64,000 bases of DNA, from assembly GCF_024585285.1 (NCBI RefSeq), contig NZ_CP040755.1:1364001-1428000 (forward strand), given 5' to 3'. This document shows, one piece after another, positions 25,356-62,477 of this stretch; position 1 is the stretch's first letter; each line of letters opens with the position of its first letter. This stretch comes from Colwellia sp. M166. GTDB lineage: Bacteria; Pseudomonadota; Gammaproteobacteria; Enterobacterales; Alteromonadaceae. A model generated the notes under the pieces. That model saw nothing but the letters and a program-made list of their open reading frames with translations, had not been told where the DNA came from and ran no database searches. The translations under genes and the position numbers were made by a program.

Positions 25356-25371
25356 CTGTATAAATTAACAG
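25356..25371 (+). promoter_or_regulatory. LexA box of recN
   Basis: CTGTATAAATTAACAG is a full CTGT-N8-ACAG SOS box, 66 bases before the recN start. It overlaps a possible -10 (TATAAA) for a TTGAAA -35 at 25338. The box lies at the centre of a longer perfect inverted repeat (AAAAAACCAGATACTGT and its complement) ending in a T-run, which could also act as a terminator for upstream read-through. Confidence 0.88.
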
Positions 25372-49504: not shown

Positions 49505-50449
49505 TTAAACGAGTGAAACGCTATCGCCGTTGCCTGCTGGGTCGGGTTCTTGGCCGCCTGTTTCTTGGCTAAGTGCGTTAAACTTTGTTTCAATGGCGCC
49601 GAACTTTTCAGCTAAACCGCCTAATGTGTTATTTAGTTCGTCGAATTGTTCAGCGGTAACGCTTGGCGCGGCTGTTTCTTCTGCCGGTGCTTGTTCTTCT
49701 GCAGGAGCTGCCACGTTGAATTTTTCAACTTTAGCTTCAAGGTCACTAAACTTTGTTTCAATGCCGTCAATTTTTGTCGTAATATCGCCGAATTGAGCCA
49801 TTAGGGCGTCGTGTTGTTCTTTAGTCATGGTGTTTTCCTCGGCGATATTGGGTTCAACCTCAGCCGTTTGTGATGTTGAAAAGAGATTAATAAGTTGGTT
49901 GAATAAGCTTTTGGCTTGTTCTTGTGTTGCGGCTGCGGTGTTGGCGGTGCTTTGTGGGGCGGCGATAATGAAGTCACTGTGTTGCAGCGATTCTAATTCG
50001 CTGTAGTCGTGTTGTATTTCATTATCACCAATAGAGAATTTAAGCATGGTTGTGCCGGTACTGGCGGGGCTGTCGGTAACCGCTAAACCTTGTAGGTAAC
50101 ATTTGCCACTACCTGCAAAATCTAGGTTAGGTTCGATTGACATAAACAACTTTTGTCCGTCTTTGTTGGCGTCGAGTAAATAGCTATTTGCGGTAAGTTT
50201 AACGAATAAGCAAAGTTTGCCGCCTTTTTTCGCGGCTTTTACGGCGTCAACTGTGCCCCAGTTTTTGCCTTCGAATGGTCCCCAGCTTGAGCGGAAATGT
50301 TCCGGCCAAATAACAGCGGTGTATTCTTCGATTGAATAGGTTTCGGCCATGTCTTCGATCCATTGTTTGGTAATCGTTCGACCGTCAACGGTTGCGCCCT
50401 CTTTGGCGGCAACTACCCAACCCGTTTTCGCTGTTTTATCTGATGCCAT
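49505..50449 (-). CDS. Capsid scaffolding protein / protease (gpO-like)
   Basis: 314 residues. The N-terminal half is the herpesvirus-type serine protease domain of gpO with the conserved EYTAVIWPEHFRSSWGPFEGKNWGTVDAVKA (histidine) and GLAVTDSPASTGTTML (nucleophilic serine region); the C-terminal half is a helical, Gln/Ala/Glu-rich scaffold (about 210-300). It shapes the procapsid and then cleaves itself and the capsid proteins. The ATG at 50449 follows GCAGG; the in-frame ATG at 50494 lacks a site. First gene of the late minus-strand operon. Confidence 0.88.
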   Translation of the reverse strand: MASDKTAKTGWVVAAKEGATVDGRTITKQWIEDMAETYSIEEYTAVIWPEHFRSSWGPFEGKNWGTVDAVKAAKKGGKLCLFVKLTANSYLLDANKDGQKLFMSIEPNLDFAGSGKCYLQGLAVTDSPASTGTTMLKFSIGDNEIQHDYSELESLQHSDFIIAAPQSTANTAAATQEQAKSLFNQLINLFSTSQTAEVEPNIAEENTMTKEQHDALMAQFGDITTKIDGIETKFSDLEAKVEKFNVAAPAEEQAPAEETAAPSVTAEQFDELNNTLGGLAEKFGAIETKFNALSQETGGQEPDPAGNGDSVSLV

Positions 50450-50582
50450 GTTATAGCCTGCAATTATTTGTTTAATTGCTTGCAGCATAGCCATAAAAAC
50501 ACGCTGATTAAATCGGTATTGTTTTGGTGAATTCCTAGATTTGACTTTTAGGAAAAGCTAGGTTTTTTAATGCGTTATATGC

Positions 50583-50601: not shown

Positions 50602-50643
50602 TGTGACGAGTTATTAAACTTAGTGGGTATTTTATTAAACGCA

Positions 50644-52449
50644 ATGGCATATAGTGTAGAAATTAGGGAGGCGGCAAAACGGCTTTATTTACGCCACCAT
50701 ACCCCAGATGAAATTCGCAATGAATTGGGCTTGCCAAATAACCGCGTTATTTACTATTGGGCAGACAAGCACAATTGGCGCGATATGCTACGCGAGGAAG
50801 ACGTTGACGAGGCGATTGCACGCCGCATTGTAATGCTGACGGATATTAGCGACAAAAGCGGCAACCAAATTAAAGAATTAGACATGCTGATTGAAAAGCA
50901 TGTAAAGCTGAAAAAGCAACGGGCGAATGCTGAACAACAAGCACAAAGGCAACAAGGCGGTGCAGCTGCCGCGACAAGTTCCCCAAATGGTAAGCGCGGC
51001 AAAGGTGGTGATTCCCAAAATGGGAAAAACGATCATAAAAAAAGTGGTCGTAAGAAAAAGAACGATGTTAGCCATTTGGTGGCTGAAGACTTTGGCACTT
51101 GGTATGACTCGTTGTTTGAATACCAAAAAACCATGCACGAGAATTTGCACCAGCGTATTCGTAATATTTTAAAAAGTCGGCAAATTGGCGCAACGTATTA
51201 TTTTGCCGGTGAAGCATTTGAACAAGCGGTATTAACCGGCGACCCACAAATATTCTTGTCGGCTTCGCGCGCACAAGCTGAAGTTTTTCGCACGTATATT
51301 ATTGCTATTGCCCATGAGTTTTTCGAAATTGAATTAACCGGCAACCCTATTGTATTAAATACCGCACACGGCGAGGCCGAACTGCGGTTTTTAAGTACCA
51401 ACAGTAAAACCGCGCAAAGTTATCATGGCCATGTGTATATAGATGAATACTTTTGGATAGGTAAGTTTGACGAGTTGAACAAACTGGCCAGTGCCATGGC
51501 TACGCATAAAAATTGGCGTAAAACTTACTTTAGTACGCCGTCGACCAAAGCGCACCCCGCGTACAACTTTTGGACGGGTGATCACTGGCGACGGGGTAAA
51601 GCTGATCGCGAAAATATCGAGTTTCCCTCGTTTATTGAAATGCGCGACAAAGGGCGTCTTTGCCCTGATAAGCAATGGCGCTTTATTGTCACTATTGAAG
51701 ATGCCTTAGCCGGTGGTTGTGAGTTATTCGACATTGAAGAACTGCGCGACGAATACAACGCCGATGATTTTAACAACCTGTTTATGTGCATTTTTGTTGA
51801 TGATGCCGACGGTGTATTTAAGTTTAGCGACTTAGAAAAATGTATGGTTGATGCGGCACGTTGGCAAGACCATAAACCTGCCGAGCCAAGGCCATTTGGT
51901 AACCGCGAGGTTTGGCTTGGTTATGACCCGTCACGAACGCGCGACAATGCCACGTTGGTGGTTGTTGCACCAGGGGAGAAAAAAGGCGAAAAATTCAGAG
52001 TATTAGAAAAACACTATTGGCGCGGTTTGAACTTTTCGCACCATGTTAGCGAGATTCAAAAAATATACGCTAAGTACAGAGTTACTTATATTGGGGTTGA
52101 TACTACCGGCATTGGCGCAGGGGTATTTGATTCAATTAGCACGTTGTTTCCGCGTGAAGCGACGGCTATTCATTACAGCGTAGGCAGTAAAACGCGCTTG
52201 GTGTTGAAAATGATTGATATTATTGAGGGTGGCCGCTTGGAATTTGACGCGAGCCATAAAGATATAGCAATGAGTTGTTTAGCGATTAGGCGAACAACTA
52301 CCGATAGCGGCAGCAGTATTACGTTTAAAGCTAGCCGCGATAATGTAACGGGCCACGCTGATGTGTTTTTTGCCATTAGCCACGCTGTTATTAACGAACC
52401 ACTTAACCACGCACATAAAAGGTCTTCATCATGGGCAATGCAGAATTAA
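50644..52449 (+). CDS. Terminase ATPase (large) subunit (gpP-like)
   Basis: 601 residues. The N-terminal helix-turn-helix ([28 protein letters not shown]) is typical of gpP, then comes a Lys/Gly-rich linker (about 90-140), the ATPase with [16 protein letters not shown] as Walker A-like loop and HVYIDEYFW as Walker B, and a nuclease-type C-terminal domain with [18 protein letters not shown] and [14 protein letters not shown]. It drives DNA packaging. I start it at the ATG at 50644, where homologous proteins begin; an in-frame GTG is at 50623. It overlaps the portal gene by 19 bases. Confidence 0.9.
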
Positions 52450-53468
52450 CAACAAATACACCAGGCGACACGCCAAGCGATAAATCTCCGCAAAAACAAC
52501 AAAACGCGCCTGTGGTGTTTAGTATGCCCGAAACGGTTATGCCAAATATGTGGCTAACCGATTACGATTCGTTATTTTATAACGACGGCGACGGTTATTG
52601 GGAGCCGCCCGTTGACCGTTTATTGTTGGCTAATTTAGTAAGACGAAACGCGCAGCATGGCGGCATTATTTATGCGCGCGCTAAAATGGCCGCGGCGCGT
52701 TTTGAAAGCGGCGGCATGACCAACGAACAGGTTGAAGCGGGGCTGATTAATTTGGTGCAATTTGGTGATTTGGCATTGTTAAAAATACGGAACGGTTTTG
52801 GCGTGCCTGTGCGGTTGTTTCCGTTGCCCAGCTACCGAACGCGCGTTACGGGTGACGGTGGCGCTGCGGTGCTTGAGCGCGAAAATAACATTAAGCGTTA
52901 TAAAGCGCGCGATATTGTGTGGGTAAAACAGTACGACGTTGTGCAACAAGTTTATGGTTGCCCTGATTATTTAGGCGGTTTACAAGCGGCCTTGTTAAAT
53001 GAAGATGCGACGTTATTTCGCCGTAAATATTTTATTAATGGCGCGCACATGGGGTTTATTTTGTATTCGACCGATCCGAATATGGACCCTGATGTTGAAG
53101 ACGAAATTAAAGCAAAAATTCAAGACAGTAAAGGTGTGGGCAATTTTAAAAGTTTGTTTGTCAATATTCCTAACGGTAAAGAAAAAGGCTTACAAATTAT
53201 TCCCGTGGGTAATTTTGAAAGCAAAGACGAGTTTATGAACGTTAAAAATGTGTCGGCGCAAGACGTGTTAAACGCGCACCGTTTTCCACCGGGCTTGGCG
53301 GGTATTATTCCGGCAAATACGGCTGGCTTTGGCGACCCTGAAAAAACCGATAAAGTGTATTTTAAAAATGAGACTAAACCCTTAATTAAAAAGTTGATTG
53401 ATGCGGTGGCGAACGACGCTGAAATTGGCGGTCGTTTAAAGTTGGTGTTTGATCTAGAGGTTGAATAA
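52431..53468 (+). CDS. Portal protein (gpQ-like, PBSX family)
   Basis: 345 residues, the length of P2 gpQ. The family signature is clear: [47 protein letters not shown] and [27 protein letters not shown]. The portal forms the ring through which DNA enters and leaves the head. It is translated in overlap with the terminase ATPase and converges with a small PapB-like gene; no terminator is obvious between them. Confidence 0.92.
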
Positions 53469-53489: not shown

Positions 53490-53735
53490 TTAACGGCCTA
53501 CCCAATCGTGTTCTTTTATTTGTTCGATAATTTGCGCGTGTTGTTCTAGCTTTTTTAATGCGCGGGTTAAGTTGCTACTGGGCACGCTGTTCAACGCTGC
53601 CGCTGCGGTTTTATTTATGCCACGCACTAGGTGATCACTTAGTGCGTTTTTTATGTTTTCGCTTTTTATGCTGCTAAATTTTACTAGTAAATTTAGTCTT
53701 TTTTGGCTTTGTGAACCTTTGTATAAACACTTCAT
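53490..53735 (-). CDS. PapB-like small transcription regulator
   Basis: 81 residues. The sequence LLVKFSSIKSENIKNALSDHLVRGINKTAAAALNSVPSSNLTRALKKLEQHAQII follows the pattern of the PapB/FocB adhesin-regulator family, including the helix-turn-helix with repeated hydrophobic spacing. Such proteins bind AT-rich DNA. It is divergent from the Ogr-like gene over a 149-base region and converges with the portal gene. A role in timing of prophage late transcription is possible from context but not shown. Confidence 0.6.
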   Translation of the reverse strand: MKCLYKGSQSQKRLNLLVKFSSIKSENIKNALSDHLVRGINKTAAAALNSVPSSNLTRALKKLEQHAQIIEQIKEHDWVGR

Positions 53736-53842
53736 TTTTTTATGCCTGCCCTATTAGCACTTTTTTGGTTTTATTGGTGCTGTTAAAACTTATCACTTAA
53801 CTGATAAATTATTTTACTTTGTTGTTGTTGACCTCACAACAA

Positions 53843-53858
53843 CTGTATAAAATAACAG
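53843..53858 (+). promoter_or_regulatory. LexA (SOS) box before the Ogr-like late activator
   Basis: CTGTATAAAATAACAG is a full CTGT-N8-ACAG box, differing from the recN box of this window only in the central bases. It overlaps a likely -10 (TATAAA at 53846-53851) with TTGTTG 18 bases ahead and lies 26 bases before the start codon. LexA bound here should block transcription of the late activator until DNA damage. Confidence 0.75.
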
Positions 53859-53884: not shown

Positions 53885-54133
53885 ATGGCACGGGTTAATT
53901 GTCCTAATTGTTTGGCGAAAGCAACGGTAACGTCACGCGAAAAACAATCAGACCATGTTGTACATTTGTATTGCTCGTGTAATAACACGAAAGCGTGCGG
54001 CGCTACGTTTAGAATTTGCCAAAGCTTTGACCATTTTTTAAACCCACCGGTGACCAATACCACTGAAATGGCCGCGGCACTGTTGAAGCAGTTACCACGG
54101 CAAGCGCAATTGGATTTGTTGAATAGTTGTTAG
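53885..54133 (+). CDS. ogr: Ogr/Delta-like late gene activator
   Basis: 82 residues with the zinc-binding pattern of the Ogr/Delta family: CPNC near the start, then YCSCNNTKACG with the final cysteine before ATFRICQSFDHFLNPP. These proteins bind upstream of P2-type late promoters and recruit RNA polymerase through its alpha subunit, switching on head, tail and lysis genes. GGGGTG precedes the ATG. A LexA box lies over its predicted promoter. Confidence 0.88.
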   Translation: MARVNCPNCLAKATVTSREKQSDHVVHLYCSCNNTKACGATFRICQSFDHFLNPPVTNTTEMAAALLKQLPRQAQLDLLNSC

Positions 54134-61862: not shown

Positions 61863-62477
61863 ATGGATATCGCAGAAAGAATAAAAAAAAGACGTTTACA
61901 GCTGGGCTTAACGCAAGCTGAACTTGCTGAAGCAGCATTGACCAGCCAAACAGCATTACAGAAAATTGAGGCAGGATTAACAAAAAGCCCTAGAAATATT
62001 AAGCAGTTAGCAGCTGCTTTAAACACTTCTCCTGAATTTTTACAGTTTGGCGTTGGTGATATAGATAACGGCGTGGTAGTAGCTGCCGCTAATAATTATT
62101 TACCTTTAGTGAGCATGGTTCAGGCGGGTGCGTGGTCTGAAATTCAAGAGCCGCCTGTTTCAGATACTAAGCTTTATCCTTGCCCAGTTAATTGCAGCAA
62201 ATACTCATTTGTTGTACGGGTTGAGGGAGATAGCATGATGAATGCTTTTGTACCTGGCGATTTATTGTATGTTGACCCTGAATCTCAGCCAATTAACGGA
62301 TCTTTTGTTATCGCTCGATTAGACGATGAGAACCAAGCGACTTTTAAGCAATTAATTATTGACGGCAATAAAAAATACTTAAAAGCACTTAACCCTGATT
62401 GGCCTAATAAATTTATAGAAATAAACGGCAATTGTACGGTTGTGGGTAAGGTGGTTTTTGCGGGAAAAGAACTTTAG
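61863..62477 (+). CDS. C repressor: XRE helix-turn-helix with S24 self-cleaving peptidase
   Basis: 204 residues. N-terminal helix-turn-helix (1-60: AERIKKRRLQLGLTQAELAEAALTSQTALQKIEAG) and C-terminal LexA/UmuD-type peptidase with Ser124 in EGDSMMNAFVPGD and Lys162 in ATFKQL. The expected cleavage site Ala88-Gly89 (VQAGAW) is present. It should hold the lytic promoters shut and be inactivated with RecA during SOS. This differs from classical P2, whose small C repressor is not cleaved. Confidence 0.9.
   Translation: MDIAERIKKRRLQLGLTQAELAEAALTSQTALQKIEAGLTKSPRNIKQLAAALNTSPEFLQFGVGDIDNGVVVAAANNYLPLVSMVQAGAWSEIQEPPVSDTKLYPCPVNCSKYSFVVRVEGDSMMNAFVPGDLLYVDPESQPINGSFVIARLDDENQATFKQLIIDGNKKYLKALNPDWPNKFIEINGNCTVVGKVVFAGKEL

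What the first reader, a model, noticed from the sequence alone, without database searches (positions are those of the whole stretch)
53843..53858. LexA box over the promoter of the prophage late activator
CTGTATAAAATAACAG is a perfect CTGT-N8-ACAG box overlapping a likely -10 of the Ogr/Delta-like gene, and matches the host recN box at 25356 except in the centre. In classical P2 late genes depend on Ogr and the phage is not SOS-inducible; coliphage 186 uses a LexA-controlled antirepressor (Tum). Direct LexA control of the late activator would put host SOS directly on head, tail and lysis genes, in addition to the cleavable C repressor. The same 149-base region also serves the divergent PapB-like gene, so both could be SOS genes.
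Basis: partly seen in the sequence, partly recalled or inferred. Interest (0 to 1): 0.75.

Follow-up and report, generated by a model that had tools for sequence, protein, structure and literature searches.

The report
Host SOS box on phage late-switch gene
A dormant virus in a bacterial chromosome, and many of its relatives, carry what looks like the binding site of the host's DNA-damage repressor on the promoter of the gene that switches on virus assembly, which suggests that DNA damage releases this gene directly.

Summary
The box is real: CTGTATAAAATAACAG at 53843-53858, one base different from the host recN box. Against a matrix from ten host SOS boxes it is the window's second-best site (23.1 bits; recN, part of the matrix, 26.7; next 11.7). 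An exact CTGT-N8-ACAG lies upstream of ogr in 66 of 135 relative clusters (0.25 expected; reversed control 0), and in 18 of 19 clusters of the nearest clade, the 19th having one mismatch. It lies over the -10 (window, Pseudoalteromonas phages) or over the -35 (Vibrio, Aeromonas, Shewanella, Moritella prophages). Rivals are weaker: late promoter regions carry a different palindrome, phages with unlike immunity repressors share the box, and the PapB-like gene has its own palindrome. Best reading: host LexA represses the late activator, so SOS opens late-gene control directly. LexA binding and induction are untested. The examined relatives in Enterobacterales and Pseudomonas lack a promoter-proximal box. 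Precedents: Bacillus phage GIL01 (LexA on late control) and coliphage 186 (cI on its late activator). New variant of a known kind.

The parts
53843..53858 (+). LexA-type box CTGTATAAAATAACAG (20-mer AACTGTATAAAATAACAGTA)
   Evidence: conserved upstream of ogr in relatives
53848..53853 (+). -10 hexamer TAAAAT of the ogr promoter, inside the box
   Evidence: TATAAT at the same offset in the 17 other exact clusters of this clade
53825..53830 (+). -35 hexamer TTGTTG, 17 nt before the -10
   Evidence: TTGnnn 16-17 nt before the -10 in all 18 clusters, best of spacings 16-18
53885..54133 (+). ogr: Ogr/Delta-type zinc-finger late activator, 82 aa
   Evidence: PF04606 E 3e-10; phrog_603; C6, C9, C30, C32 and C38 invariant in alignment A1 of 15
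53490..53735 (-). PapB-like regulator gene, divergent from ogr; not judged to be under the box
   Evidence: PF03333; moves independently of ogr
53790..53807 (.). palindrome TTATCACTTAACTGATAA, likely operator of the PapB-like regulator
   Evidence: found (up to 2 mismatches) in 23 of 27 loci with a PapB-like gene and in 1 of 16 without
50532..50554 (.). 23-bp palindrome TTCCTA-N11-TAGGAA between the terminase gene and the opposite-strand gene at 49505-50494: candidate Ogr-binding site
   Evidence: in 24 of 24 such regions of this clade, the window included; once per record in 18 of 19 records
50623..52449 (+). terminase large subunit gene, by position and by annotation of relatives; not tested with a family model
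   Evidence: ORF; relatives
52431..53468 (+). portal gene, same strand as ogr
   Evidence: PF04860
53622..53647 (+). terminator-like stem between portal and ogr
   Evidence: 2 found in the stretch against 0.6 expected in shuffles
61863..62477 (+). C repressor with HTH and S24 peptidase domain; no LexA-like box beside it
25356..25371 (+). host recN LexA box, the yardstick

Best explanation
Host LexA binds the box and blocks RNA polymerase at the ogr promoter, so the late activator stays off in the lysogen. DNA damage activates RecA, LexA cleaves itself, ogr is transcribed, and Ogr activates the divergent late promoters at about 50.5 kb through a 23-bp palindrome. Damage probably also cleaves the S24-type C repressor, which opens the early operon (excision, replication). 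Late genes therefore sit behind two SOS locks, one phage-made and one host-made. Shown here: the box, its fit to host SOS boxes, its conservation, and its overlap with core promoter elements placed by alignment. Inferred: LexA binding, repression, SOS induction, and the Ogr site.
For: Matrix score 23.1 bits, inside the leave-one-out range of ten host SOS boxes (12.7-26.6). Exact box upstream of ogr in 66 of 135 clusters against 0.25 expected (maximum 3 in 300 resamples), and in 58 of 9088 other stretches of the same loci. In 36 phage records, most of them chosen because they have the ogr box, 70 exact boxes (about 31 of them at ogr) against 4 of the reversed control. Two registers, over the -10 (18 clusters) or over the -35 (48 clusters, best -10 at offset 26 in 32): a site on the -10 cannot well serve an activator, and both positions block polymerase. 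The same box sits with three kinds of immunity repressor. Named phages with an exact box: PY3, ACA1, C5a, K139, phiO18P, ValB1MD-2, L9-1, 10N.286.54.F9_PE001, F108, Pmp6, ZF14_PE001. The host has one lexA match, with two such boxes of its own.
Against: No binding or expression data. Of 135 clusters, 52 have no box within one mismatch; nearly all examined Enterobacterales and both named Pseudomonas loci are among these, the few with one mismatch having it beyond -100, and 23 of 29 rows of one Vibrio-rich clade have none. HP1 and HP2 have two mismatches. Scored with the window host's matrix, the boxes of the nearest clade are weaker (11.5-25.1, median 16.5 bits) and the median best site of the other 116 clusters is 8.6 bits. 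The relatives were the best 80 hits per search; in the evenly drawn order survey 18 of 70 clusters are exact, two of them too far upstream to count. V. cholerae LexA failed to shift several predicted boxes (PMC5963079, passage). E. coli ogrK, listed as LexA-repressed, hardly changed with ciprofloxacin in one study (PMC11002266, passages) and rose 2.1-fold on arrays in another without full qPCR support (PMC5811628, passages); it has no box within one mismatch. How ogr is expressed in infection without SOS is unexplained.
Confidence: 0.82

Rival explanations
1. The box is the binding site of Ogr itself (autoregulation, as reported for P2).
For: A published passage says that P2 late control works through autoregulation by Ogr of its own promoter (PMC8537503). 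P2-type Ogr sites, as I recall, have TGT and ACA half-sites.
Against: The terminase/scaffold intergenic regions carry another palindrome, TTCCTA-N11-TAGGAA in 24 of 24 of this clade and TTCSGA-N11-TCSGAA in 35 (with N12 in 2 more) of 47 others; neither occurs in any of 247 ogr upstream regions, and none of the 71 late regions has an exact LexA-type box. That this palindrome is the Ogr site is itself an inference.
Confidence: 0.05
2. The box is an operator of the phage's own immunity repressor, as cI acts on late control in coliphage 186.
For: In 186 this role falls to cI (PMC8537503 passage). The C repressor is LexA-like in its C-terminal half.
Against: Window and PY3 have an HTH-S24 repressor, ACA1 and C5a a short HTH repressor without S24, K139 a Phage_CI_repr/Phage_CI_C repressor, yet all have the box. 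No site within two mismatches lies in the window's C-YdaS region.
Confidence: 0.05
3. Chance or plain promoter sequence: the TATA centre is a -10 and the arms mean nothing.
For: 42 exact sites genome-wide against 24 reversed controls; in this clade the centre is a -10 and is as invariant as the arms.
Against: In 19 clusters of this clade seven of the eight arm columns reach 2.0 bits and the eighth 1.7, against flank means of 0.71 and 1.28; in the other class the box is over the -35, with the -10 outside it.
Confidence: 0.04
4. The box serves the divergent PapB-like gene, or PapB binds it.
For: Shared 149-nt region.
Against: In the 40 loci of this clade the box stays 41-46 nt from ogr although the PapB-like gene lies hundreds of bases away or is missing in many; PapB-like genes mostly carry their own palindrome (23 of 27).
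Confidence: 0.03

Closest known systems
Bacteriophage GIL01 (Tectiviridae), LexA control of P1 and of late promoter P3
   Same: Host LexA represses the promoter that yields the late activator and also the late promoter; DNA damage opens both (PMC6182141: abstract and Discussion read).
   Different: Unrelated phage and host; LexA acts with the phage protein gp7; there is no dedicated phage repressor; the activator gp6 is a LexA homologue, not a zinc finger.
Coliphage 186: LexA-regulated p95-tum; cI in late control
   Same: Relative of P2 tied to SOS through a LexA-regulated promoter (PMC7708051 passages); late control is held by a repressor (PMC8537503 passage).
   Different: In 186 LexA controls an antirepressor and cI holds late control; here the box is on the late activator itself.
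P2 ogr and E. coli ogrK
   Same: Same family of activator; ogrK stands in a published list of SOS genes, apparently from UV expression data (PMC11002266 passages).
   Different: P2 ogr is described as autoregulated (PMC8537503 passage); ogrK has no box within one mismatch in 300 nt.
Vibrio phage K139 / Haemophilus phage HP1 group
   Same: ogr beside the portal gene; exact box in K139 overlapping its annotated putative promoter P13, box with two mismatches in HP1 and HP2.
   Different: Box over the -35 rather than the -10; K139 Ogr is about 35% identical to the window's.

Membership tests
LexA-regulated SOS gene | CTGT-N8-ACAG box close to the species' own consensus | tested here: met
LexA-regulated SOS gene | Box overlaps core promoter elements | tested here: met
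   by alignment of relatives; no mapped start site, and the generic scan did not report the promoter
LexA-regulated SOS gene | Box conserved at orthologous promoters | tested here: met
   for the nearest clade; absent or degenerate in several other clades
LexA-regulated SOS gene | LexA binds in vitro | not testable with these tools
   no binding assay available
LexA-regulated SOS gene | Induced by DNA damage, not in a non-cleavable lexA strain | not testable with these tools
   no expression data for this prophage seen in the ten paper searches
Ogr/Delta late activator | PF04606 zinc finger with its cysteines | tested here: met
Ogr/Delta late activator | Binds a site upstream of late promoters | tested here: inconclusive
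   candidate palindrome found, binding inferred
RecA-cleavable S24 phage repressor | Ala-Gly site and Ser/Lys pair | tested here: met
   alignment with host LexA; cleavage itself not tested

The most novel reading that the evidence does not exclude
In several lineages related to P2 (HP1/K139 group and Pseudoalteromonas C5a group) host LexA has independently, in two different promoter registers, taken over the job that cI does in 186: keeping late control silent. The late-gene switch then belongs to the host SOS regulon. In phages whose own repressor protein lacks an S24 domain (K139; also C5a and ACA1, which carry an S24-type peptidase as a separate protein), SOS would ignite late genes without waiting for immunity to fall, and single-stranded DNA made by the phage's own rolling-circle replication could be the signal that couples replication to late expression during infection.
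Probability: 0.4. Interest if true: 0.75.

Novelty: new variant of a known kind. Interest (0 to 1): 0.62.

Why it matters
How ogr is controlled in phages of the K139/HP1 type appears open: a paper on phage Smhb1 says only that the place of the gene may mean a different timing of late genes (PMC8537503, passage). A LexA box gives a direct, testable answer that would apply across many marine prophages and some Pasteurella phages, and it would link DNA-damaging agents to virion production by a route that does not go through the phage repressor.

Tried and rejected
Ogr autoregulation, phage-repressor operator, PapB control and chance were each examined and found weaker. The idea that the C repressor might share the LexA site failed: no similar site lies beside its own gene. 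The generic promoter scan was uninformative. Read-through from the terminase-portal operon into ogr, giving positive feedback, was considered: in 19 of the 44 class V clusters measured the last long same-strand frame ends within 80 nt of ogr, but in the window a terminator-like stem at 53622-53647 may block it. That remains open. A blastn of the region against the plasmid collection gave no match. The order survey gave two exact boxes too far upstream to count (L346, L347). The 16 other genomes held for the window's genus have no Ogr relative.

Paper searches for a published LexA box on an Ogr-type gene: (all 10 allowed, open-licence library only). None of the listings or passages that I saw describes one; the nearest is the ogrK listing. 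The K139 genome paper is not held.

Full report
Observation. The sequence at 53843-53858 is CTGTATAAAATAACAG as stated. It is one of two exact CTGT-N8-ACAG sites in the window; the other is the recN box at 25356, from which it differs at one of 16 positions. The window lies in a single 4.84-Mb contig with 42 exact sites against 24 for the reversed pattern. Exact matches alone are therefore not rare, although the chance of one in this 149-nt region is about 0.0009. I built a 20-position matrix from ten boxes of the same genome: lexA twice, recN, recA, umuD-like, dinG/polB, topB-like, a tyrosine recombinase, and two more whose genes (sulA-like, rmuC-like) I named by eye and which Pfam did not confirm. 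The ogr box scores 23.1 bits; the ten score 12.7 to 26.6 when each is left out. It is the second-best site of the window after recN, which is in the matrix; the third has 11.7 bits.

Gene. The ORF 53885-54133 is an Ogr/Delta zinc-finger protein (PF04606; phrog_603). It stands alone on the plus strand, downstream of the portal gene (PF04860) and convergent with a DNA methylase. The early operon (YdaS-like, Cox-like, replication protein GPA) is on the minus strand beyond it, next to a C repressor with HTH and S24 domains. Aligned with host LexA, that repressor keeps Ala-Gly, the Ser of GDSM and the Lys, so RecA-dependent cleavage is plausible.

Conservation. Phage records: of the 14 related phages fetched first, 8 have an exact box upstream of ogr (PY3, ACA1, C5a, K139, phiO18P, ValB1MD-2, 10N.286.54.F9_PE001, L9-1), one has one mismatch (PV94), and five show none within one mismatch: 10N.286.55.A5_PE003, BIBS67, ESSI2_ev239, UFJF_PfPro, and 1.202.O, whose longer, tandem Ogr was read from its second half, so its true upstream region was not tested. 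Of seven further phages, F108, Pmp6 and ZF14_PE001 are exact, SMHB1 has one mismatch, HP1 and HP2 two, and KS14 has none within one mismatch. IMG/VR: 39 of the 40 loci of the nearest clade (L034-L073, the first a copy identical to the window) are exact, and L054 has one mismatch. Named genomes (best 80 of 187 relatives): the box occurs in Vibrio, Aliivibrio, Psychromonas, Photobacterium, Moritella, Shewanella and Aeromonas prophages, though not in all; in Enterobacterales (Xenorhabdus, Photorhabdus, Kluyvera, Buttiauxella, Citrobacter, Pectobacterium, Yersinia and others) it is absent, or with one mismatch only beyond -100, and it is absent in both Pseudomonas loci. Together, 247 loci fall into 135 clusters at 85% identity. 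Of these 66 have an exact box and 83 have one within one mismatch in 150 nt; the reversed control gives 0, and 300 Markov resamples give a mean of 0.25 and a maximum of 3. Other stretches of the same length in the same loci give 58 of 9088. These loci were the best 80 per search, so I also took an order-wide survey: 76 of 394 genomes have an Ogr relative. I looked at 89 loci, which are 87 of the roughly 120 places listed; they form 70 clusters, 18 exact and 29 within one mismatch. Two of the exact ones lie at -138 and -142 and are not counted as promoter boxes, which leaves 16 of 70.

Two registers. In the clade of the window (18 clusters with an exact box) the -10 lies inside the box at offset 5, TATAAT in 17 of 18 and TAAAAT in the window, with TTGnnn 16-17 nt upstream. 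In the other 48 clusters the best -10 lies 26 nt from the box start in 32 cases, which puts the -35 inside the box. In both, a bound repressor would exclude polymerase. A protein tree of 139 Ogr rows needs 19 changes of the exact-box label (shuffled mean 44; well-supported branches force at least 11), and box-less clades, the Pseudomonas one among them, lie between the two registers on branches without strong support. This fits repeated gain or loss. The tree rests on 83 columns and many forks are unresolved.

Results that weaken the case. With the window host's matrix the boxes of the nearest clade score 11.5 to 25.1 bits (median 16.5), mostly below the window's own, and the median best site of the 116 other clusters is 8.6 bits. 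One Vibrio-rich clade has no box in 23 of 29 rows, some of them with only a left half. In the window's clade the -10 columns are as invariant as the arms.

Rivals. Terminase/scaffold intergenic regions carry a palindrome, TTCCTA-N11-TAGGAA in 24 of 24 of the window's clade and TTCSGA-N11-TCSGAA in 35 (N12 in two more) of 47 others. It is absent from all 247 ogr upstream regions, and none of the 71 late regions has an exact LexA-type box. The first form occurs once in 18 of 19 records, the second once in 10 of 15 (K139 and phiO18P are among the five without it). I infer that this palindrome is the Ogr site. Immunity repressors differ (window and PY3 HTH-S24; ACA1 and C5a short HTH without S24, with a separate S24-type peptidase protein; K139 Phage_CI_repr with Phage_CI_C) while the box is kept, and the window's C-YdaS region has no site within two mismatches. 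The palindrome TTATCACTTAASTGATAA occurs in 23 of 27 loci with a PapB-like gene and in 1 of 16 without, at changing distances from ogr, while the box stays put.

Mechanism. I propose that LexA holds ogr off in the lysogen, that SOS releases it, and that Ogr then activates the late promoters. The S24 repressor gives a second, phage-made SOS input to the early genes. The box, its overlap with promoter elements placed by alignment, and the conservation are shown; LexA binding, repression and induction are inferred.

Literature. A paper on phage Smhb1 states that P2 late control works through autoregulation by Ogr, that cI has this role in 186, and that the place of ogr in K139 and Smhb1 may mean a different timing (PMC8537503, passages). 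The ACA1 paper discusses SOS through gp1 and gp4; its passages on LexA and Ogr mention no box at ogr (PMC10612066, passages). GIL01 is the closest precedent in logic (PMC6182141, abstract and Discussion). E. coli ogrK stands in a list of SOS genes, apparently from UV expression data; it changed by -0.29 to 0.34 log2 units with ciprofloxacin in that paper (PMC11002266, passages), rose 2.1-fold on arrays in another with partial or no qPCR agreement (PMC5811628, passages), and has no box within one mismatch. The K139 genome paper is not held.

Verdict. I rate this a new variant of a known kind: direct host LexA control of a late gene activator in relatives of P2, conserved within clades and probably gained or lost several times.

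Noticed in passing
50532-50554: 23-bp palindrome TTCCTA-N11-TAGGAA in the divergent late region; Vibrio-type phages mostly have TTCSGA-N11-TCSGAA of the same length. Candidate Ogr sites, unlike the TGT-N12-ACA that I recall for P2.
   Followed up: partly
53790-53807: Palindrome TTATCACTTAACTGATAA that moves with the PapB-like gene; likely its operator.
   Followed up: partly
L023:3526-3541, L025:3511-3526: Second exact LexA-type box before the gene convergent with ogr in K139-like phages (phrog_5581, unknown function).
   Followed up: partly
L274:2590-2605: Exact box upstream of gp5 to gp7 in phage ACA1.
   Followed up: no
L372, L373, L375: The ogr gene is not annotated as a CDS in the HP1, HP2 and Pmp6 records.
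   Followed up: no
L119, L122, L123, L125: Some Vibrio prophages keep the left half of the box but have lost the right arm (CTGTATAAATCCTCAC).
   Followed up: no
L310, L311, L376, L378: Some Vibrio and Salinivibrio phages have a longer, tandem Ogr (about 145-190 residues); several keep an exact or one-mismatch box.
   Followed up: no
L015, L016: Host LexA-type boxes upstream of a tyrosine recombinase gene and of a HicA-like toxin gene.
   Followed up: no
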